DNA from: a virus
DNA length: 20,849 bases
Reading direction: 5' to 3' (one strand)
Virus record (IMG/VR): IMGVR_UViG_3300031223_000049
Span: 1 to 20,849 of that record
This document shows, piece after piece, positions 3,601-15,066 of this stretch. The position numbers and the translations under genes were made by a program. The stretch's first letter is position 1. Each line of letters begins with the position of its first letter. The notes under the pieces are model-generated. The model saw only the letters and a program-made list of their open reading frames with translations, was not told the DNA's origin and searched no databases.

Positions 3601-3801
3601 ATGGCATCAAACGTAACAGTACAGGTAACAGGCGGATCACCAAAAGTAGTTGAAGCGGCAACGGTTCGTGAAGCTATGGAATTGATTGCAATTACTGGTA
3701 ACTACTCAGCAATGGTTAATGGCAACCCTGCTTCTTTAGACGATAGTCTCTCGAATTATTCATTCGTAACATTGTCACCAGCCATCAAGGGCGGACTTTA
3801 A
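3601..3801 (+). CDS. Ubiquitin-like beta-grasp protein (ThiS/MoaD-like), Gly-Gly-Leu C-terminus
   Basis: This 66-aa protein has the compact layout of ThiS/MoaD-type beta-grasp folds: strand (NVTVQVTGG), strand, helix starting TVREAMELI (21-29), strand with YSAMVNG (35-41), the loop PASLDDSLSNY (43-53) and a last strand FVTLSP (55-60). The C-terminus is AIKGGL, so the di-glycine needed for adenylation and isopeptide or thioester chemistry is Gly64-Gly65 with one extra leucine. A JAB protease would have to remove Leu66, and one is encoded three genes on. The genes that follow encode E2, JAB and E1 proteins, which makes a role as a protein modifier much more likely than sulfur carriage. It has its own leader, and a hairpin separates it from the E2 gene, so it may be made in excess. 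The fold call rests on pattern and context. Confidence 0.8.
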   Translation: MASNVTVQVTGGSPKVVEAATVREAMELIAITGNYSAMVNGNPASLDDSLSNYSFVTLSPAIKGGL

Positions 3802-3822
3802 TCCGAACCTTGTAACATTCTT

Positions 3823-3847
3823 GCCGCTTCACGCCTCGTGGGGCGGC
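3823..3847 (+). terminator. Strong hairpin between Ubl and E2 genes
   Basis: GCCGCTTCAC pairs with GTGGGGCGGC (10 bp, two G-T pairs) around the loop GCCTC. Only a weak T-run (CCTTTAACC) follows. It ends 19 nt before the E2 start. It may act as a partial terminator or as a 3' stabiliser that keeps the short ubiquitin-like mRNA more abundant than the enzyme mRNAs. Confidence 0.6.
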
Positions 3848-3866
3848 ACCTTTAACCGGAGTATTT

Positions 3867-5510
3867 ATGAATGTAGCGGAATACGTTTCACAGAATCCTT
3901 CACATAACTTTTCGTCCTATATGTCAACCATTGCTGGGACGATGAACCTTGATCTTCAGAGACTAGATATGGAGGATTTTACTTCCTGTATCGAGAGTCC
4001 TGATCCAAGTATTGTGAATCCAATTTTATTTAAAAAGCTCAACGAAGCAGCAGTTACTGTCGCCATGGAAACTGAGCCTAGCAACTTTTTAAGCGAGTTT
4101 ACCTTTCCAGTTTTGAAGCTAAATCTTGGTAATGAGATTTCTAGACTTACTAGAGAGGCGCAATCATCGAGTCGAGATGCTCAAAATCGGTATGATCAAT
4201 TTAATACCGCCATGGAGCTTACGACGAAGACTAGGATGCGCTTAGCTTTATACGAGAAGATGGAACTCGAAGGGAAGAATATTGATAGCATAGAGACACA
4301 GATCACTAAGATTGAGTCAGACGGCTGGTGGCGATTTGTAAGCTACACAAACGGCGACCTATACTTTCAGACAGGGCCTATACTTATGCGTGAATATAAT
4401 CCCGCAGCTGGTATCGACTTAAGCGTTGACTTTGGGCAGTTCCTGATACGCTTTCCTATTGACGGTAGCTATTCAAACATGAAGGCTTACCCCTTATTTA
4501 TGAATCCGATTAAATACGGAAAAGATGCTATGCATCCTCATGTTTCAATCACCGGAACTTTTTGCTGGGGCGATGCTGCGGAAATAGTGGCGCAAGCCAT
4601 GAGTCAACAGGACTTGGTGACGGCAGCGGATATGCTTCGAGCCTTACTCATAACGTATGAGCCTTCAAACCCATACACAGCACTATCTACGTTTGCGAGA
4701 AATAAAGAGAGAATCCCGTTTCAGAGGATTGCCCATTTAGGCCATAGAGATGCAAGACGGAGAGCTGTTCCTAATCCACGTTACGGAGAGATTGATCTTA
4801 CTAATCCTGAAGATAGGTATAAAGACCTTACGATTCTAAAGAGCTTAGAGTCTAATGGTAAGACTTACTACTATGTGATTCTAGGACAAGGTAAAACAGG
4901 ATTTACTTACTATAGTATAGGTTATGTAAATCCAATCAGAGGATGCTGTGCTTATGGTTTTACTCACTCACGATCTACAATAGATTACACTCACGAAGTA
5001 CTTGGCACGGCTGATGGTTTTCAAATAGTAGAGAAGCACGAGATTCCCAACGGCTTATGGGAAGCCCATCTTCAGAAATGTAACGAAGGAAGACCGAGCT
5101 TTAACGAAGAGTTTTACCTAAAACCCAACATGATAGTGTATGGACTTACGGGCCCAGATATAGTCTTCAATGGAGAAAAAGTAATTTACCTTACGAATGA
5201 TACGTTTATGTATAAAGGAGCTTTAATCGAATCAAATAGTTCTCCTAAGTGGATTGACCTAGCTTTAGAGGAACCTTTAAGGGACACATGTTTTTGGGTA
5301 GACGGAGGAGATAACCCTACTGAATTCTCCGATATTCAGAGTCTAATCTTTGAAGACATAGAAATAGGGTGGGAGTATGTCTGTAATGAGTGTGGCGAAT
5401 CTAATTCGATAGAAGAGCCTGATGAAGTGCTTATACAAAGAGAACGTAGAACAGAATTTATTCACGAGTGTCATAATTGTGGACACATGACAGAAGGAGA
5501 GGACTTATGA
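3867..5510 (+). CDS. E2-like ubiquitin-conjugating enzyme with C-terminal zinc ribbon, 547 aa
   Basis: The protein probably accepts the ubiquitin-like protein from the E1 on a cysteine and transfers it to a target. Residues about 150-275 match the E2 (UBC) core: strands around 155-200, then MHPHVSITGTFCWG (222-235) with His223 ten residues before Cys233, exactly the His-to-Cys spacing of the eukaryotic HPN motif and catalytic Cys. The E2-typical helix and Pro motif follow (DMLRALLITYEPSNPY, 255-270). The HPN asparagine is His here, as is common for divergent bacterial E2s. The N-terminal 150 residues look helical and have no recognised family. Residues 290-500 are an unrecognised beta-rich region. 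The end carries CNEC (506-509) and CHNC (535-538), a zinc ribbon or treble clef. GGAG lies upstream of the ATG. The gene overlaps the JAB gene by four bases (ATGA). Whether the tail acts as an E3-like module is unknown. Confidence 0.75.
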   Translation: MNVAEYVSQNPSHNFSSYMSTIAGTMNLDLQRLDMEDFTSCIESPDPSIVNPILFKKLNEAAVTVAMETEPSNFLSEFTFPVLKLNLGNEISRLTREAQSSSRDAQNRYDQFNTAMELTTKTRMRLALYEKMELEGKNIDSIETQITKIESDGWWRFVSYTNGDLYFQTGPILMREYNPAAGIDLSVDFGQFLIRFPIDGSYSNMKAYPLFMNPIKYGKDAMHPHVSITGTFCWGDAAEIVAQAMSQQDLVTAADMLRALLITYEPSNPYTALSTFARNKERIPFQRIAHLGHRDARRRAVPNPRYGEIDLTNPEDRYKDLTILKSLESNGKTYYYVILGQGKTGFTYYSIGYVNPIRGCCAYGFTHSRSTIDYTHEVLGTADGFQIVEKHEIPNGLWEAHLQKCNEGRPSFNEEFYLKPNMIVYGLTGPDIVFNGEKVIYLTNDTFMYKGALIESNSSPKWIDLALEEPLRDTCFWVDGGDNPTEFSDIQSLIFEDIEIGWEYVCNECGESNSIEEPDEVLIQRERRTEFIHECHNCGHMTEGEDL

Positions 5511-6673
5511 GTATGGATAAAAGTTTAAAAGTTTTAATAAGCCCGTTAGCTCTCACAAAGATAAATTACTGGGTTCAAGTTTCGACAGTCGAAATCAGCG
5601 GCCTTGGTAAGTGTAAGTATGACGCTAACAAACATGCTTACGTTGTATCTGATGCGTGGTTACTGGAACAAGAAAATGGCCCAACGACTACTGATATCGA
5701 GGCAACTGCGGCTGCTAAGTTATTATATGAAACGAGGGAGACAGAGGGTGACTTAAATTTCTGGTGGCATAGTCATGTAAACATGGGCGTGTACTGGAGT
5801 GGTACTGACACCGACACCATTAAAGAGTTTGGCGATAACGGTTATTGCTTGGCTACGGTCTTCAACAAGAAGAATGAAATGCGATCGGCTTTCTACCAAG
5901 GGGCTAACGGGTTTTTACCTGCGGTGTTCCTTGACAAACTAGAGACTGATACTTTTTACAGTATTGATGAAGCTGTCCTTATAGAATGTCAGTCTGAATT
6001 TGAGTTAAAATGCAGAACTAAGACGTACAAACAGCCTAAGTTTAAGAGTCAGATACCTAACCATTTATATACTGGTAAACATATTGCCAAGAAGTCTAAT
6101 GATTATGATTTCTCTAACTACTATGATGAGTATGATGAGTATGCTCAGGAGTATGTCGGATTACTGCCAGCGGATGAGAATGAGGAAAATTCTATTTACT
6201 TGGGTTTCGACTTTAACGGCAGCACAGCTCACCTAGAGCAGATCATTAGCGGTACTAAGAGTTACGCCAACTACCCTCATTATAACCCTTTGACTGATGT
6301 TGAGCGGCGTGGACATGGCGATTTGAATCCCTTCTCTCATCTACTATGGGACGAGGTTACAGAAACATGGAAAGGCTACCCAAAGTTCATTGCAGATAAT
6401 AAAGATGAACACGCTCCGACTTACATGAGTATGGCTCCGTTTACAATAAGAGATTGGTCAGACATTTGCAGACTGTATAAGAAAATACTTTTAAACGATG
6501 CTGTAGGTATTGAAGACATTAATGACTTTGTTACTGACTTCATGGATCTTTCATGGGGGGAAATTTGGGAAGTAGGAACAGATCATAACAATGAGAACTT
6601 CTATGCAGATTACAAATTAGAACTAAACAGATTAAACATTCTTCATAATTACGACAAAAAGGTAACAAAATGA
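5507..6673 (+). CDS. JAB/JAMM metalloprotease (deubiquitinase-like), 388 aa
   Basis: JAB/JAMM enzymes are zinc isopeptidases that cut ubiquitin-like proteins from targets or mature their C-termini. The signature is complete: Glu29 in VEISGLG, then His88-Ser-His90, seven residues, Ser98 and Asp101 (HSHVNMGVYWSGTD). The JAB domain covers about residues 5-165. The C-terminal 220 residues are unrecognised and contain a Tyr/Asp/Glu-rich stretch (YYDEYDEYAQEY, 205-216). I chose ATG 5507 over an in-frame ATG at 5477 because GGAGAGG precedes it and it forms an ATGA overlap with the E2 stop. Likely jobs are removing Leu66 of the ubiquitin-like protein and reversing conjugation. The 3' end of the gene lies in an 85-bp tandem duplication. 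Confidence 0.85.
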   Translation: MSMDKSLKVLISPLALTKINYWVQVSTVEISGLGKCKYDANKHAYVVSDAWLLEQENGPTTTDIEATAAAKLLYETRETEGDLNFWWHSHVNMGVYWSGTDTDTIKEFGDNGYCLATVFNKKNEMRSAFYQGANGFLPAVFLDKLETDTFYSIDEAVLIECQSEFELKCRTKTYKQPKFKSQIPNHLYTGKHIAKKSNDYDFSNYYDEYDEYAQEYVGLLPADENEENSIYLGFDFNGSTAHLEQIISGTKSYANYPHYNPLTDVERRGHGDLNPFSHLLWDEVTETWKGYPKFIADNKDEHAPTYMSMAPFTIRDWSDICRLYKKILLNDAVGIEDINDFVTDFMDLSWGEIWEVGTDHNNENFYADYKLELNRLNILHNYDKKVTK

Positions 6674-6766
6674 CAATAAGAACTTCTATGCAGATTACAA
6701 ATTAGAACTAAACAGATTAAACATTCTTCACAACTACAACAAAAAGGTAACAAAATGACAACAAGA
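6588..6766. repeat. 85-bp tandem duplication at the JAB/E1 junction
   Basis: Bases from about 6588 to 6681 recur 85 bp downstream with few changes, mostly transitions. Each copy includes the run of the JAB 3' end, the AAGG ribosome binding site and an ATGACAA start. In copy 1 the ATG at 6670 overlaps the JAB stop (ATGA) and opens only an 11-codon frame ending at 6705. In copy 2 the matching ATG at 6755 starts the E1 gene. The 85-bp period shifts frame. ACAAT(G/A)AGAA at both edges suggests duplication through a short homology. Confidence 0.9.
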
Positions 6767-7465
6767 TACACTTATAAAGATTCTCTACTCAGACAGAGTG
6801 ACCTCATTCCGCTTGAGGTTCTTGGTACTCCGATTACCATTATTGGGGCGGGGGCAGTTGGTTCATGGACTGCTCTCGCTCTCGTAAAGATGGGATTCGC
6901 CAACTTAACGATTCAAGATATGGATACAATTGACACCGTTAACATGAACAGCCAGTTCTATCCACACAAAATGGTGGGCAACAAGAAAGCAACAGCGTTG
7001 CATGAAATGATCTACGACTTTACAGGCATCTCGATTAATGTGAAGAACTCCCGATTTAATAAAGGAGATAAACTAAACACAAGCATCGTGATATCGGCAG
7101 TAGATTCAATGGACGTTAGACGGAACATATTTGACGGATGCACTAGCGCAGTAGATTGGTTTATTGACCCTAGAATGGGAGCCGAAAGCATGGCCATGTA
7201 CACTATGCAGCCTCATGATCTTGAAGATATGGCAGGATACATAAAATCGTGGCACAGTGACGAGGACTCGGTACATGAAGCATGTACCGCGAAGTCTACT
7301 ATCTACTGTGCAAACATTCTGGCAGGGTTAGTTGCAATGAACGTCAAGAAACTTGCTACAAAGCAAGCCTACACAAGAGTAATGACTTTCGACCTTCCAA
7401 CTATGTCACTAAATTCATGGAGTAAGAACGATGATTCACAAGAAAAAACACAGAACCAGCTTTAA
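6755..7465 (+). CDS. ThiF/E1-like ubiquitin-activating enzyme, 236 aa
   Basis: E1-like enzymes adenylate the C-terminal glycine of a ubiquitin-like protein and often pass it to a catalytic cysteine. The Rossmann nucleotide motif is ITIIGAGAVGSW (27-38), followed by the conserved Asp57 (QDMDTIDTVNMNSQF, 54-68) and Lys77-Lys78 (GNKKATAL). SAVDSMDVRR (114-123) matches the family's conserved Asp motif. Cys177 in HEACTAKS is placed as the candidate catalytic cysteine. The protein is a minimal single-domain E1 without ubiquitin-fold or E2 domains; the E2 is separate, upstream. The ribosome binding site AAGG and start lie in the second copy of the 85-bp duplication. The end overlaps the next gene by 35 nt. 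Confidence 0.85.
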   Translation: MTTRYTYKDSLLRQSDLIPLEVLGTPITIIGAGAVGSWTALALVKMGFANLTIQDMDTIDTVNMNSQFYPHKMVGNKKATALHEMIYDFTGISINVKNSRFNKGDKLNTSIVISAVDSMDVRRNIFDGCTSAVDWFIDPRMGAESMAMYTMQPHDLEDMAGYIKSWHSDEDSVHEACTAKSTIYCANILAGLVAMNVKKLATKQAYTRVMTFDLPTMSLNSWSKNDDSQEKTQNQL

Positions 7466-7655: not shown

Positions 7656-7918
7656 AAAAGCTAGTACAAGTGATTGAAACAAACGAAAGCGCACTAGAGT
7701 CATTGATGGGAAAGCGGGTTACGTTTTTATGTCTTAATTATATCTATGTCGGTGAGTTAGTTGGAGTAAACGAGACAAGCGTATGTCTAAAAAATCCTGC
7801 AATAGTTTACGAAACAGGTAAGTTTTCAGATAAGAGCTACAAGGACGAGCAAAGTCTTTGCGTTGAAGAGTTCTTTATCTCTATGAACTGTATTGAGAGT
7901 TTTGGAGAGTTAAAATGA
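7652..7918 (+). CDS. Small beta-rich phage protein of unknown function, 88 aa
   Basis: Residues 20-55 read as alternating short strands (KRVTFLCLNYIYVGELVGVN), with a pattern like an Sm-type small beta barrel. YETGKFSDK follows, a motif I associate from memory with an uncharacterised phage family that travels with Ser/Gly/Trp repeat proteins; I cannot verify the family name. The gene overlaps its neighbours by ATGA on both sides, so it is translated as part of the operon. AAAGGAG lies upstream of the start. Confidence 0.7.
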   Translation: MKKLVQVIETNESALESLMGKRVTFLCLNYIYVGELVGVNETSVCLKNPAIVYETGKFSDKSYKDEQSLCVEEFFISMNCIESFGELK

Positions 7919-8124
7919 CTAGAGGGAAGAGACAGAAGTGGTCTAGATCTTGGTCTGGGTATAAGTCTGGGTATGGGACTTGGTCTAAATCTAGATCGGG
8001 GTCTTGGCATTATTCTTATTCTTATTCTTATTCTTATTCTGGGTCTTGGGCTGGGTCTTGGTCTGGGTCTAGGCCTGGGTATTGGGCCTGGGCTTGGTCT
8101 AAATTAGGAGAACGAAATGATTAG
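7915..8124 (+). CDS. Ser/Gly/Trp/Tyr repeat peptide 1, 69 aa
   Basis: After a basic start (MTRGKRQK) almost every second residue is serine, alternating with Trp, Gly, Tyr, Arg or Lys (YSYSYSYSYSGSW in the middle). The end is SKLGERND. No globular domain is expected; the composition fits a disordered, aromatic-rich peptide. The DNA repeats TCTTGG, TCTGGG and TATTCT hexamers, so length can vary by slippage. It overlaps the upstream gene by ATGA and the next gene by 8 nt. A second copy with the same start and end motifs follows. Confidence 0.65.
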   Translation: MTRGKRQKWSRSWSGYKSGYGTWSKSRSGSWHYSYSYSYSYSGSWAGSWSGSRPGYWAWAWSKLGERND

Positions 8125-11312: not shown

Positions 11313-12738
11313 ATTGTCGAACACCCACCGAGATGTGGGGTTGTTTTGGGAGATGGGATCAGGAAAGACGGGAGGAGTAATAAACATATTGCGCCAGAAA
11401 TACTCCCAGAAAGGTAGGGTAATGCGTACCCTAATACTATCACCGCTAGTCACTTTACACAACTGGAAGGACGAATTCAAGATTCACAGTTACGCTGACG
11501 AGAACCTGATCCATATACTCAAAGGCTCCAGCACCCAGAAGGTGAAGAAATTCATGGACTGGTCATGTAACAAAGAGACTGGAGAAATAGGAGGTGACTA
11601 CATATACATCACCAATTACGAATCTCTGAACAGCCAGAAGCTATTTGATTTCCTAACTGCATGGCAACCTGAGATTATTATCGCTGACGAGGCTCACTTC
11701 CTCAAGAATCCTAGTGCTAAAAGAACGAAGGCAGCAATAAAACTAGGAGACAAGAGTCTCCATAACTTTATCCTAACAGGAACCCCGATTCTAAATAGCG
11801 TGAAAGACGTGTTCGGTATGTTCCGATTCTTGGATCGAGGGGAAACATTCGGTAAGAACTTTCATGTCTATGTCAACACGTACATGGAAGACGAGAACGC
11901 TGGATGGAAGAATAGCAGTAGTCACTTCCCGAAACTCGTAGCACGAACCGAGAAGTATGATGAGCTAACCGAAAGAATCTATACCAAGTGCCATCGTGTC
12001 TTGAAGAAGGACGTGATCAAGGATCTTCCGCCACTAGTGACTAAGGTTATAAGAGTCGAGCTAAGTAAAGAGCAGATGAAATACTACAAGGAGATGGAAC
12101 GTGACTTTGTTACATTCGTTCAAGAGAAAGAGAAACAGAAAGAAATGTCTGGTGCCGTGGTCGCACAACTGGCAGTCACTAAAGCACTTCGACTCCAGCA
12201 AATTGTCACAGGACACGTCAATACAGAAGACGGAGAGACGATCTTTATTCAGAACAATCCTAGACTGGATGAAGTCTCTCGACTCGTTGATGAGATAGTC
12301 GTAGAGAACGGACACAAGTGTATATTGTGGTGCTCGTTTCGTGCTAATTACATACAACTCTCTAAGCTGTGTGAAGAGAAGAAACTAAACTATGTGATGT
12401 TGACTGGCGAGCAGAACCTAGACCAGAAGCAAGCCTCAATGAAGGAGTTCAATGATGACCCTAATACAAAGATTATTATTGCTAACAGGAGGGCTGGCGG
12501 TATTGGTATTAATCTGGTGGCTGCTTCTTACTCTATTGTTTATTCGAGAAACTTCTCGCTTGCAGACGAGCTTCAATCTGAGGCTCGAAACCACAGGGGA
12601 GGATCACAAATCCACAAGGCGATCACCAAGATAGACTTAGCTGCTGCCAATACCATAGATGAACGTGTCCTTGAGGCATTAAAAAATAAACAAGATGTGA
12701 GTAAACGCATCATCGATCTAATAAAGGAGATCAAATGA
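11266..12738 (+). CDS. SNF2-like superfamily 2 helicase, 490 aa
   Basis: An ATP-driven DNA translocase or helicase. It shows a Q-like start (PYPHQITAI), Walker A EMGSGKT (29-35), motif II DEAH (141-144) in IIADEAHFLKN, motif III ILTGTPI, and in the second RecA domain KCILWCSFRANY, MLTGEQ, motif V RRAGGIGINLVAAS and motif VI with Arg441 and Arg444 (EARNHRGGSQ). The compact size lacks the extra domains of chromatin remodellers and fits phage DEAD/SNF2 helicases next to primases and polymerases. ATG 11266 is preferred over ATG 11260 because AAGGAGG ends right before the latter. It overlaps the primase gene by 47 nt and the endolysin gene by ATGA. Confidence 0.85.
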   Translation: MQYKLKPYPHQITAIKLSNTHRDVGLFWEMGSGKTGGVINILRQKYSQKGRVMRTLILSPLVTLHNWKDEFKIHSYADENLIHILKGSSTQKVKKFMDWSCNKETGEIGGDYIYITNYESLNSQKLFDFLTAWQPEIIIADEAHFLKNPSAKRTKAAIKLGDKSLHNFILTGTPILNSVKDVFGMFRFLDRGETFGKNFHVYVNTYMEDENAGWKNSSSHFPKLVARTEKYDELTERIYTKCHRVLKKDVIKDLPPLVTKVIRVELSKEQMKYYKEMERDFVTFVQEKEKQKEMSGAVVAQLAVTKALRLQQIVTGHVNTEDGETIFIQNNPRLDEVSRLVDEIVVENGHKCILWCSFRANYIQLSKLCEEKKLNYVMLTGEQNLDQKQASMKEFNDDPNTKIIIANRRAGGIGINLVAASYSIVYSRNFSLADELQSEARNHRGGSQIHKAITKIDLAAANTIDERVLEALKNKQDVSKRIIDLIKEIK

Positions 12739-13454
12739 GATTATGGAGAAGATTTAAAAGCTGGGTGATTGGCCTAGTCAAAGACGAGAGTTCAGGAAGT
12801 GTCAATCCGACACCAACTAGGGACATTCCGCCACCAATACCTAGTGTCACAGTGTCACCAGCAAACCCCAACCAGTTGCCTCTATTTGACGATGTGGATA
12901 ACGGTGACGTAAGAAACCCTGACTGGTTTTACATCGCATCGAACGCAAAGCTGGACAAAGATGGTCTGTATTCAACAGTTCTCTGGTATCAGAAGGAAGC
13001 GTTTAAGAACAGATCAAGGTATGAGAACGTAGGTAACTCCCTCGGAATTCCTTGGTGGTTTATTGCGGCACTACACATGAGAGAAAGTGGCATGAACTTT
13101 GCAGGTGTACTCCACAACGGAGACGAGATCCTTGGAACAGGTAGGCTAACTTATCGAGTACCAAAAGGTCGAGGCCCTTTCGACACATGGGAAGCCTCAG
13201 CGATTGATGCTCTCAAAATGAAAGGCTTTCACATGAAGAAGGCTTGGTCGCTCGGAGATGCTTGCGCCTATAGTGAGAGGTTCAACGGATTAGGTTACAG
13301 AAACAAGGGTGAGTACTCACCATACGTCTGTGCCGGAACCTCGTTCCACGATGAGACTGGCAAGTATGTTAGTGACGGTCGATATAGTAGATCAGCAGTA
13401 GAGAAACAGCCCGGAGTCTTGGCTCTGTGGATAGCGTTAGGGGTACAGCAATGA
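12735..13454 (+). CDS. Endolysin-like peptidoglycan hydrolase, 239 aa
   Basis: Residues about 60-235 resemble a lysozyme-fold family seen in phages and bacteria: LGIPWWFIAALHMRESGMNF (103-122) with Glu117 as the probable catalytic acid, then VLHNGDEI (125-132) and VPKGRGPFDTWEASAIDAL (142-160). The N-terminus is basic and amphipathic with a short hydrophobic piece (WVIGLV), followed by a Pro-rich linker (about 25-50). It is not a typical signal peptide. The gene sits in the replication block, away from the spanin-like genes at the right end, and overlaps both neighbours by ATGA, which is unusual for a lysis gene. It could also be a virion or entry lysin. The family is recalled from motif pattern. 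Confidence 0.65.
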   Translation: MRLWRRFKSWVIGLVKDESSGSVNPTPTRDIPPPIPSVTVSPANPNQLPLFDDVDNGDVRNPDWFYIASNAKLDKDGLYSTVLWYQKEAFKNRSRYENVGNSLGIPWWFIAALHMRESGMNFAGVLHNGDEILGTGRLTYRVPKGRGPFDTWEASAIDALKMKGFHMKKAWSLGDACAYSERFNGLGYRNKGEYSPYVCAGTSFHDETGKYVSDGRYSRSAVEKQPGVLALWIALGVQQ

Positions 13455-13912
13455 GTGACTTTGAAGCAGCAGACGAGACGATTACTACAGATGAACTCGA
13501 TGAGATCGTTAGTGGCATGGCTCTTGCAAAGGCAGAGTATGAATCAGCGAAGCAAGGTTCGGATATTCTTTATAAGCAGTATCAGGAATTGCGGGCCAAG
13601 TGTATTGCAACATTGCAACAGGCTGGCAAGTCTAAGTATTTCGTTGATGGTGTAGGCACTATCAGTGTAACTGAGAAGCTAAAGATTCAGACGATCAAGA
13701 ACCCTGAAGATAAGGAACAGTTTTTTGACTGGTTGAAGAGTAAGTATGGCAACGAGGGCTACCTCACCTACGCTACTGTGAACTACCAATCACTTAACAG
13801 CCTCTATAACTCAGAGTTCGAGAACGCTAAGTTAGATGGAACAGCAGACAATTTTCAAATCCCCGGTGTCGGAAATCCCGAGCACGAATACGGGTTATCT
13901 TTTAGAAAGTAA
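13451..13912 (+). CDS. Coiled-coil protein, Gp157-like layout, 153 aa
   Basis: I chose ATG 13451 (AGGGG upstream, ATGA overlap with the endolysin stop) over an in-frame ATG at 13427. Residues 1-65 form an acidic start and a coiled coil. Then come AGKSKYFVDGVGTISVTEK (about 65-83), two short strands, and a helical C-terminal part with DKEQFFDWLKSKYG. Helix plus a small beta unit is the layout of siphovirus Gp157-type proteins, which sit next to SSB and recombination genes. The neighbours (putative ssDNA-binding protein, polymerase) fit. The function is not known with any certainty. Confidence 0.6.
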   Translation: MSDFEAADETITTDELDEIVSGMALAKAEYESAKQGSDILYKQYQELRAKCIATLQQAGKSKYFVDGVGTISVTEKLKIQTIKNPEDKEQFFDWLKSKYGNEGYLTYATVNYQSLNSLYNSEFENAKLDGTADNFQIPGVGNPEHEYGLSFRK

Positions 13913-13923
13913 GGAGCAGAATC

Positions 13924-14331
13924 ATGATTAATACACTTAAAGATGTGAAAGAAATTAACGGTAAAGTAATTTGCGTAATGGATGACTTAAGAAAAGAATA
14001 TCCAGAAAAATTTAATGAGTCAGGAGCTATGGATTATAAGTGGTTTGAGTCAGAGATTAGACCTAACTTTAATATATTCCTACGCCATGACGTTGATTCT
14101 TTATCTTTTAACATGCTAACTAAGCCAGTCAGTGAGGGAGGCGACCTCAAAAAATGTCAGCTTACAGAGCTTATAACTACAGGGTTAATTATGCTTCAGT
14201 ATCTTAACGCCAAGTTCCCGTGTAGAGAAAATGCAATCACCATTACAAAGTTAGAAGAGGCGCTGATGTGGCAAAAGAAAAGAACAGAAAATAGAGTGAG
14301 TAGGAATGTAGAAGGTAAAAACGAAAAATAG
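13924..14331 (+). CDS. Protein with Acb2/Tad1-like helical hairpin, 135 aa
   Basis: The C-terminal 55 residues look like the helical hairpin of Acb2-type proteins: one helix (LTELITTGLIMLQYL, about 80-94), then FPCRENAITITKLEEALMW (98-116) and a basic end (QKKRTENR). The pattern Arg-Glu-x-Ala-x-Thr-x-Leu-Glu-Glu-Ala-x-x-Trp is what I recall from phage Acb2 proteins, which soak up cyclic nucleotides and so block CBASS immunity. Acb2 is about 90 residues; this protein has an extra N-terminal part of about 75 residues of unknown fold. AAGGAG lies upstream. Hairpins of this family also occur in phage proteins of unknown role, so sponge activity is inference. Confidence 0.6.
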   Translation: MINTLKDVKEINGKVICVMDDLRKEYPEKFNESGAMDYKWFESEIRPNFNIFLRHDVDSLSFNMLTKPVSEGGDLKKCQLTELITTGLIMLQYLNAKFPCRENAITITKLEEALMWQKKRTENRVSRNVEGKNEK

Positions 14332-14352: not shown

Positions 14353-15066
14353 ATGAGTGAAGTAACGAAGAAAGCAGAAGCAGAAGTAATGACAGTAGAC
14401 GTAGATGCGTTTGGCATGGGGCCCATGTCTTCCGACGACATTGTTATCCCTAAGATTCTAGCCATGCAGGGCCTTAGTAACTATGTAACTGAAGGCGATG
14501 CCCGCTTCGGTGACTATGTAAATAGTCTCAGTGGCGAGGTACTAGGCAGCGTAGATAAGCCCGTAGAATTCATTCCTTTCTATTTGGAGAAAGTGTGGAT
14601 TGTTTCAATTAAGAAAGGAGATCGTTTTGAGTTCGAGAGATACGAGCCAGTAACAGTCGCCAATGCAAACAAACCATGGGAAGAAGTGGTTGACGGGATT
14701 AGTATTAAGAACGAGAAGTGTTTCAACTTCTACTCTATCTTACCTAGTGACCCAGCTCTCCCGTTCGTGATTGCTTTTAAAGGCACAAGTGCTAAGGCAG
14801 GACGTGAACTAGCTACTCAAATGTATGTCAAGAATAGAGCAGCAGGGAAAGTACCTCCAGCGAAGGTGATGAAACTGTATGGAACCAAGACAGAGAAAGC
14901 AGGCAACAAGTATGTTGTAATGAAGAGTTCGGTAGACAGAGACTCAACTGTAGACGAGATAGGTAACTGCCTTAACTGGTACAAAACTATCTCAGCAGGC
15001 GGAGCAAAGATCGACACAGGTGATTCACCTGCACCAGATCAAGTCAAAGAGAAACCGCAATTCTAA
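14353..15066 (+). CDS. Putative single-stranded DNA-binding protein, 237 aa
   Basis: AAGGAGAG precedes the start. DIVIPKILAMQG (29-40), VTEGDARFGDYVNS (45-58) and PVEFIPFYLEKVWIV (70-84) match a family of phage proteins usually found beside primase, polymerase and recombination genes. The remaining body is beta-rich. The C-terminus is acidic then Pro/Lys, ending in Phe (VKEKPQF), like the terminal Phe of SSB tails that bind partner proteins. Position between the Gp157-like gene and the polymerase supports an ssDNA-binding or recombination role, but I cannot show an OB fold by eye. Confidence 0.5.
   Translation: MSEVTKKAEAEVMTVDVDAFGMGPMSSDDIVIPKILAMQGLSNYVTEGDARFGDYVNSLSGEVLGSVDKPVEFIPFYLEKVWIVSIKKGDRFEFERYEPVTVANANKPWEEVVDGISIKNEKCFNFYSILPSDPALPFVIAFKGTSAKAGRELATQMYVKNRAAGKVPPAKVMKLYGTKTEKAGNKYVVMKSSVDRDSTVDEIGNCLNWYKTISAGGAKIDTGDSPAPDQVKEKPQF

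What the first reader, a model, noticed from the sequence alone, without database searches (positions are those of the whole stretch)
13924..14331. Possible CBASS-evasion sponge with an added N-terminal domain
The C-terminal segment with RENAITITKLEEALMW resembles the helical hairpin of Acb2-type cyclic-nucleotide sponges, but the protein carries about 75 extra N-terminal residues. Type II CBASS uses E1/E2 and JAB proteins, so its presence in the same phage as a ubiquitin-like set is suggestive of a counter-defence theme.
Basis: partly seen in the sequence, partly recalled or inferred. Interest (0 to 1): 0.72.

Follow-up and report, generated by a model that had tools for sequence, protein, structure and literature searches.

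The report
Tad1-type signal sponge with inserted helix
This phage gene most likely makes a variant of Tad1, a known phage protein that soaks up the alarm molecules of bacterial immune systems; it differs from known Tad1 by a highly conserved extra segment in its N-terminal part that may change which alarm molecule it binds.

Summary
The ORF is real: 135 codons at 13924-14331, with a ribosome-binding site, about 40 homologues and strong purifying selection. The Acb2-like hairpin is also real. The closest family, however, is Tad1 (Thoeris anti-defence 1), not Acb2. The family profile hits solved Tad1 structures (E 2e-17) and no Acb2 structure. It aligns to the SBSphiJ7 Tad1 family (hhalign 99.9%, E 6e-32). 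The AlphaFold2 model (pLDDT 91) has Tad1 chains as its 11 best PDB matches. The '75 extra residues' are therefore mostly the N-terminal part that Tad1 already has.

What is new is a net insertion of about 20 residues (FNESGAMDYKWFE..IRP) between the first two strands. It is near-invariant and partly helical in the model. I found it only in metagenomic viral contigs. In this subfamily the N-terminal part is better conserved than the hairpin (0.65 v 0.51), the reverse of canonical Tad1 (0.50 v 0.72), and several members have lost the hairpin signature.

Best explanation: a sponge for gcADPR-type and possibly CBASS signals, with a remodelled pocket. Ligand binding is inferred, not shown. The link to the phage's ubiquitin-like genes is not supported (E1 in 2 of 46 contigs v 0 of 50).

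The parts
13912..13917 (+). Shine-Dalgarno-like AAGGAG before the start codon, overlapping the stop codon of the upstream gp33-like gene
   Evidence: read from the sequence
13924..14331 (+). Tad1-like protein, 135 aa, the whole gene
   Evidence: ORF; homologues and profile matches to Tad1
13963..13977 (+). first long strand of the N-terminal part (residues 14-18 in the model), probable counterpart of Tad1 beta1
   Evidence: AlphaFold2 model and alignment; the correspondence is inferred
13987..14064 (+). region of the extra segment (residues about 22-47), with the near-invariant motif FNESGAMDYKWFE..IRP; helix predicted at 38-45; net about 20 residues longer than in canonical Tad1
   Evidence: alignments, models
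14074..14160 (+). next two strands and the following loop (residues 51-79), counterpart of the Tad1 APHHF strand and the FQxGPIKExGVNG loop; the window branch reads NMLTKPVSEGGDLKKC
   Evidence: hhalign against the Tad1 family, alignment
14161..14301 (+). Acb2/Tad1 helical hairpin (helices at residues 80-97 and 101-126)
   Evidence: PF24729; model; VIA-align to 7uaw_A, 72 residues at 1.7 A, Z 7.4
14290..14328 (+). C-terminal tail NRVSRNVEGKNEK, conserved as RxVEG in this family and in most canonical Tad1
   Evidence: alignments

Best explanation
The gene encodes a divergent Tad1. Established Tad1 proteins form hexamers (three dimers). They bind Thoeris signals (gcADPR isomers, also called 2'/3'cADPR) and some CBASS cyclic nucleotides tightly without cutting them, so that the defence effectors are not switched on. 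I infer that this protein does the same during infection: the hairpin drives assembly, and the N-terminal sheet, hairpin ends and C-terminal RxVEG tail form the pocket. The conserved insertion between strands 1 and 2 would be expected to lie by the pocket loops and to change ligand choice or affinity. Shown here: a real gene, Tad1 homology over the C-terminal half to two thirds, a confident predicted fold that matches Tad1, the insertion and its conservation, phage-only occurrence in the collections searched, and different neighbourhoods in related phages. Inferred: oligomer, ligand, position of the insertion relative to the pocket, and biological effect.
For: Profile search of solved structures: the hits are all Tad1, E 2.4e-17 to 1.5e-9, then gp184 (8y6v) at 8e-7. 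tblastn in 50,697 phage records: top hit is SBSphiJ7 Tad1, 48.7% identity over residues 61-135. hhalign to the Tad1 family: 99.9%, E 5.7e-32, columns 21-134. The reverse search from SBSphiJ7 Tad1 recovers members of this family (L097-L102). AlphaFold2 pLDDT 91.2, pTM 0.81; Foldseek ranks 1-11 are all Tad1, probability 0.97-1.00. Purifying selection: pN 0.12-0.18 against pS 0.69-0.89 in seven comparisons. Phage-only: two chance hits in 84,980 genomes and none in plasmids. Mobile gene: absent between gp33 and gp34 in L009 and L016, which carry it elsewhere on the contig.
Against: The Pfam score is below the curated cut-off for this protein. Sequence similarity to Tad1 is weak before residue about 50. 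The N-terminal part folded alone has no PDB match. Superpositions on Tad1 that include the N-terminal part have rmsd of 6-9 A, so the sheet or its placement differs. Members L126-L128 lack the hairpin signature. Foldseek E-values are modest (2e-3). No ligand or oligomer test was possible.
Confidence: 0.7

Rival explanations
1. A Tad1 descendant that has changed its target: the conserved insertion makes a new binding site, for another ADP-ribose-type signal or for a protein, and the old Tad1 ligands are no longer bound. The hairpin remains only as an assembly scaffold and is decaying in some lineages.
For: In this family the N-terminal part is more conserved than the hairpin in 92% of pairs (0.65 v 0.51); in canonical Tad1 in 0% of pairs (0.50 v 0.72). 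The pattern holds (80% of pairs) among six members found through a hairpin pattern. The hairpin signature is lost or degraded in L016, L018, L022, L121, L123-L127 while the FNxxGxMDxxWFE motif stays. The loop FQxGPIKExGVNG is altered in the window's own branch.
Against: The RxVEG tail and the EN of the CREN motif, shared with canonical Tad1, are still near-invariant in most members. Hairpin decay also occurs in canonical-type relatives from Vibrio and Shewanella phages. The search patterns were N-terminal, which biases the set.
Confidence: 0.2
2. An Acb2-type CBASS sponge to which an unrelated N-terminal domain was added.
For: Shared hairpin motif TKLxEAxMW.
Against: The profile hits Tad1 at 2e-17 but no Acb2 entry up to E 1, although Acb2 chains 7uq2, 8h2j and 8ixz are in that library. 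Only 15 columns align with T4 Acb2, 20.6%. The strands before the hairpin, the GP loop and the RxVEG tail follow Tad1.
Confidence: 0.05
3. A Tad1-like fold used for something other than defence, such as a replication-module or virion accessory protein, since the gene lies among replication genes.
For: It lies between gp33-like and gp34-like genes, near primase, helicase and polymerase genes; the Tad1 of phiKZ is described as injected into the host (PMC13282480).
Against: Related phages have the gp33/gp34 pair without it in between, and the gene occurs in unrelated neighbourhoods, as accessory defence genes do.
Confidence: 0.05

Closest known systems
Tad1 (Thoeris anti-defence 1): SBSphiJ7 Tad1, CbTad1 (7uaw, 8smd), CmTad1 (8kbb); PHROG 2428
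   Same: Helical hairpin, two strands before it, GPxxExG loop (main branch of the family), C-terminal RxVEG tail; phage-borne; similar length
   Different: Net insertion of about 20 residues with FNESGAMDYKWFE..IRP between strands 1 and 2; conservation concentrated in the N-terminal part; the window branch has TKPxSEGGDLxxC in place of xGPIKExGVNGx
Acb2 (T4 Vs.4, p26 of 8h2j)
   Same: Shared hairpin motif TKLxEAxMW; sponge principle
   Different: Acb2 is 88-94 aa without the N-terminal sheet; no profile match beyond 15 columns
Tad2 and Acb4 sponges
   Same: Same general strategy of sequestering signals (PMC12043709, PMC11722364)
   Different: Different folds according to those papers; no match here

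Membership tests
Tad1 | Significant sequence/profile match to characterised Tad1 | tested here: met
   E 2.4e-17; hhalign 99.9%, E 6e-32; PHROG 2428, which SBSphiJ7 Tad1 matches at 8e-47, E 4e-14 for the window protein
Tad1 | C-terminal two-helix hairpin (Acb2_Tad1_hairpin, PF24729) | tested here: met
   18 of 22 members at E <= 0.01, but the window protein scores below the curated cut-off; fold: 72 residues at 1.7 A to 7uaw_A
Tad1 | N-terminal antiparallel sheet (beta1-beta4) | tested here: inconclusive
   Three strands plus helices predicted; superposition including this part is poor, rmsd 6-9 A; alone no PDB match
Tad1 | Conserved pocket loops and C-terminal tail | tested here: inconclusive
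   RxVEG tail and CREN kept; GP loop kept in the main branch but changed in the window branch; beta1-beta2 loop replaced by the insertion
Tad1 | Hexamer that binds gcADPR and cyclic nucleotides without cleaving them | not testable with these tools
   needs purified protein
Acb2 | Profile match to Acb2 proteins | tested here: not met
   No Acb2 entry at E <= 1 although present in the library; 20.6%, 15 columns against T4 Acb2
Acb2 | About 90 aa: one short N-terminal helix plus hairpin | tested here: not met
   135 aa with predicted strands and extra helices before the hairpin

The most novel reading that the evidence does not exclude
A Tad1-derived subfamily in which the inserted FNESGAMDYKWFE segment forms a new ligand site, so that the sponge captures a signal that canonical Tad1 does not (for example another TIR-made ADP-ribose product), with the hairpin relegated to scaffold and being lost in some members.
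Probability: 0.25. Interest if true: 0.65.

Novelty: new variant of a known kind. Interest (0 to 1): 0.42.

Why it matters
Tad1 helps phages survive TIR- and cGAS-like signalling defences. A subfamily with a strictly conserved insertion beside the expected pocket, found here only in metagenomic viral contigs, would be a natural test of how sponges change ligand. It could also point to immune signals that are not yet described.

Tried and rejected
Acb2 membership: rejected by profile and alignment. Genome-contig hits L103 and L104: chance matches to short motifs in unrelated proteins. N-terminal part folded alone (pLDDT 85): no convincing PDB match by Foldseek, none with Z >= 2 by VIA-align; this does not show that the fold is new. 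Association with the ubiquitin-like set: 2 of 46 contigs v 0 of 50, not significant; many contigs are fragments. PADLOC and NCBIfam gave nothing useful for the protein. Near-identical phages: none in the annotated phage collection. Promoter/terminator scan uninformative. The original Tad1 papers (DOIs 10.1038/s41586-022-05375-9 and 10.1038/s41586-024-08122-4) were not held, so published pocket residues were not mapped; from memory, CbTad1 N92 and R109 would correspond to the family's invariant N103 and R120, a lead only. The N>C conservation result carries a search bias, tested in part. A hexamer model could not be made with the tools at hand.

Full report
Observation. The ORF at 13924-14331 on the + strand codes for 135 residues, starts with an ATG preceded by AAGGAG, and lies 11 bases after the gp33-like gene and 21 bases before the gp34-like gene. 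RENAITITKLEEALMW is at residues 101-116 and lies in the match to Pfam's Acb2_Tad1_hairpin (E 8e-5, 23.1 bits, cut-off 27). About 40 further members, most of them full length, exist in IMG/VR, 39-84% identical to it, and nucleotide changes between close ones are mostly silent (pS 0.69-0.89 v pN 0.12-0.18). The gene is real.

Which family. Every sequence test favours Tad1. phmmer against PDB sequences returns only Tad1. The profile of 22 homologues gives Tad1 at 2.4e-17 and gp184 (8y6v) at 8e-7; PMC13282480 describes the Tad1 of phiKZ, and that gp184 is that protein is my reading. In annotated phages the best hit is the Tad1 gene of SBSphiJ7, 48.7% over residues 61-135. Profile against profile, the match has 99.9% probability and E 6e-32 over columns 21-134. 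Starting from SBSphiJ7 Tad1, the search finds members of this family. Acb2 structures are in the same PDB library but are not hit; T4 Acb2 aligns over 15 columns only. The tree of the C-terminal 76 residues puts canonical Tad1 (apart from one very long branch, L011b) in one supported clade, 98/95, apart from this family; the root is unknown.

Fold. AlphaFold2 with 22 sequences gives pLDDT 91 and pTM 0.81. The 11 best PDB matches are Tad1 chains. VIA-align superposes residues 63-135 on CbTad1 within 1.7 A, Z 7.4; in alignments that include the N-terminal part the rmsd is 6-9 A. The N-terminal 78 residues folded alone keep nearly the same secondary structure (pLDDT 85) but match nothing in the PDB. 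[quoted passage not shown]

What differs. Canonical Tad1 has about nine residues between strands 1 and 2, ending in APHHF or ANHxY; this family has about thirty, with FNESGAMDYKWFE..IRP near-invariant in 38 sequences. The strand correspondence is inferred from alignment and model. By segment, mean pairwise identity is 0.78 in the insertion region, 0.56 in hairpin helix 2 and 0.44 in helix 1. In this family the N-terminal part is better conserved than the C-terminal part in 92% of pairs; in canonical Tad1 in 0%. Because some searches used N-terminal patterns, I repeated the count on six members found through a hairpin pattern; the insertion is still the best conserved segment, and N>C in 80% of pairs. 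Several members have lost the TKLEEALMW signature (L016, L018, L022, L121, L123-L125), and L126-L128 lack the CREN motif altogether. This suggests, without proving it, that the insertion carries a specific function.

Context. The gene occurs in phages with different neighbours. In L009 and L016, which share the SNF2-gp33-gp34-PolA-VRR-NUC block with the window, gp33 and gp34 are adjacent and the Tad1-like gene sits elsewhere on the contig. It was not found in cellular genomes (two chance hits) or plasmids. This is the behaviour of an accessory gene. L108 carries it just downstream of a ubiquitin-like/JAB/E1 set like the window's, but only these 2 of 46 contigs hold an E1 gene, against 0 of 50 with canonical Tad1: not significant.

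Mechanism. Most likely the protein sequesters TIR-made cyclic ADP-ribose signals and perhaps CBASS cyclic nucleotides, as Tad1 does; the insertion probably alters the pocket. Homology and predicted fold are shown; assembly, ligand and effect are inferred.

Noticed in passing
window 3601-7465: Probable complete phage-encoded ubiquitin-like pathway: 66-aa protein ending GGL, 547-aa protein with an E2-like HPHVSITGTFCWGD stretch (my reading), 398-aa protein with a JAMM-like HSHx7SxxD (Prok-JAB E 0.008), ThiF/E1 (E 3e-22). A syntenic set is in L108 6358-9777.
   Followed up: partly
L011 6115-6453 and 9995-10402: One phage contig carries two Tad1-like genes, one with the insertion and one short and very divergent without it.
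   Followed up: partly
L126 257-622, L127 10001-10369, L128 736-1104: Members that keep the N-terminal motif but have lost the hairpin signature and the RxVEG tail.
   Followed up: partly
window 13427-13912 and 14353-15066: Genes similar to Pam3 phage gp33 and gp34 (PF23984, PF23977) flank the Tad1-like gene; function unknown.
   Followed up: no
window 7915-8124: 69-aa ORF of low complexity, rich in S, G, Y and W (GSWHYSYSYSYSYSGSWAGSWSGS).
   Followed up: no
window 12735-13454: 239-aa protein with no family match, 44% identical to a protein of L108; the sequence looks lysozyme-like around WWFIAALHMRESG (my reading).
   Followed up: no
L131 899-1210, L132 887-1204: Cultured Vibrio and Shewanella phages carry short Tad1-like proteins with a degraded hairpin signature but a conserved RGVEG tail, annotated as hypothetical.
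   Followed up: partly
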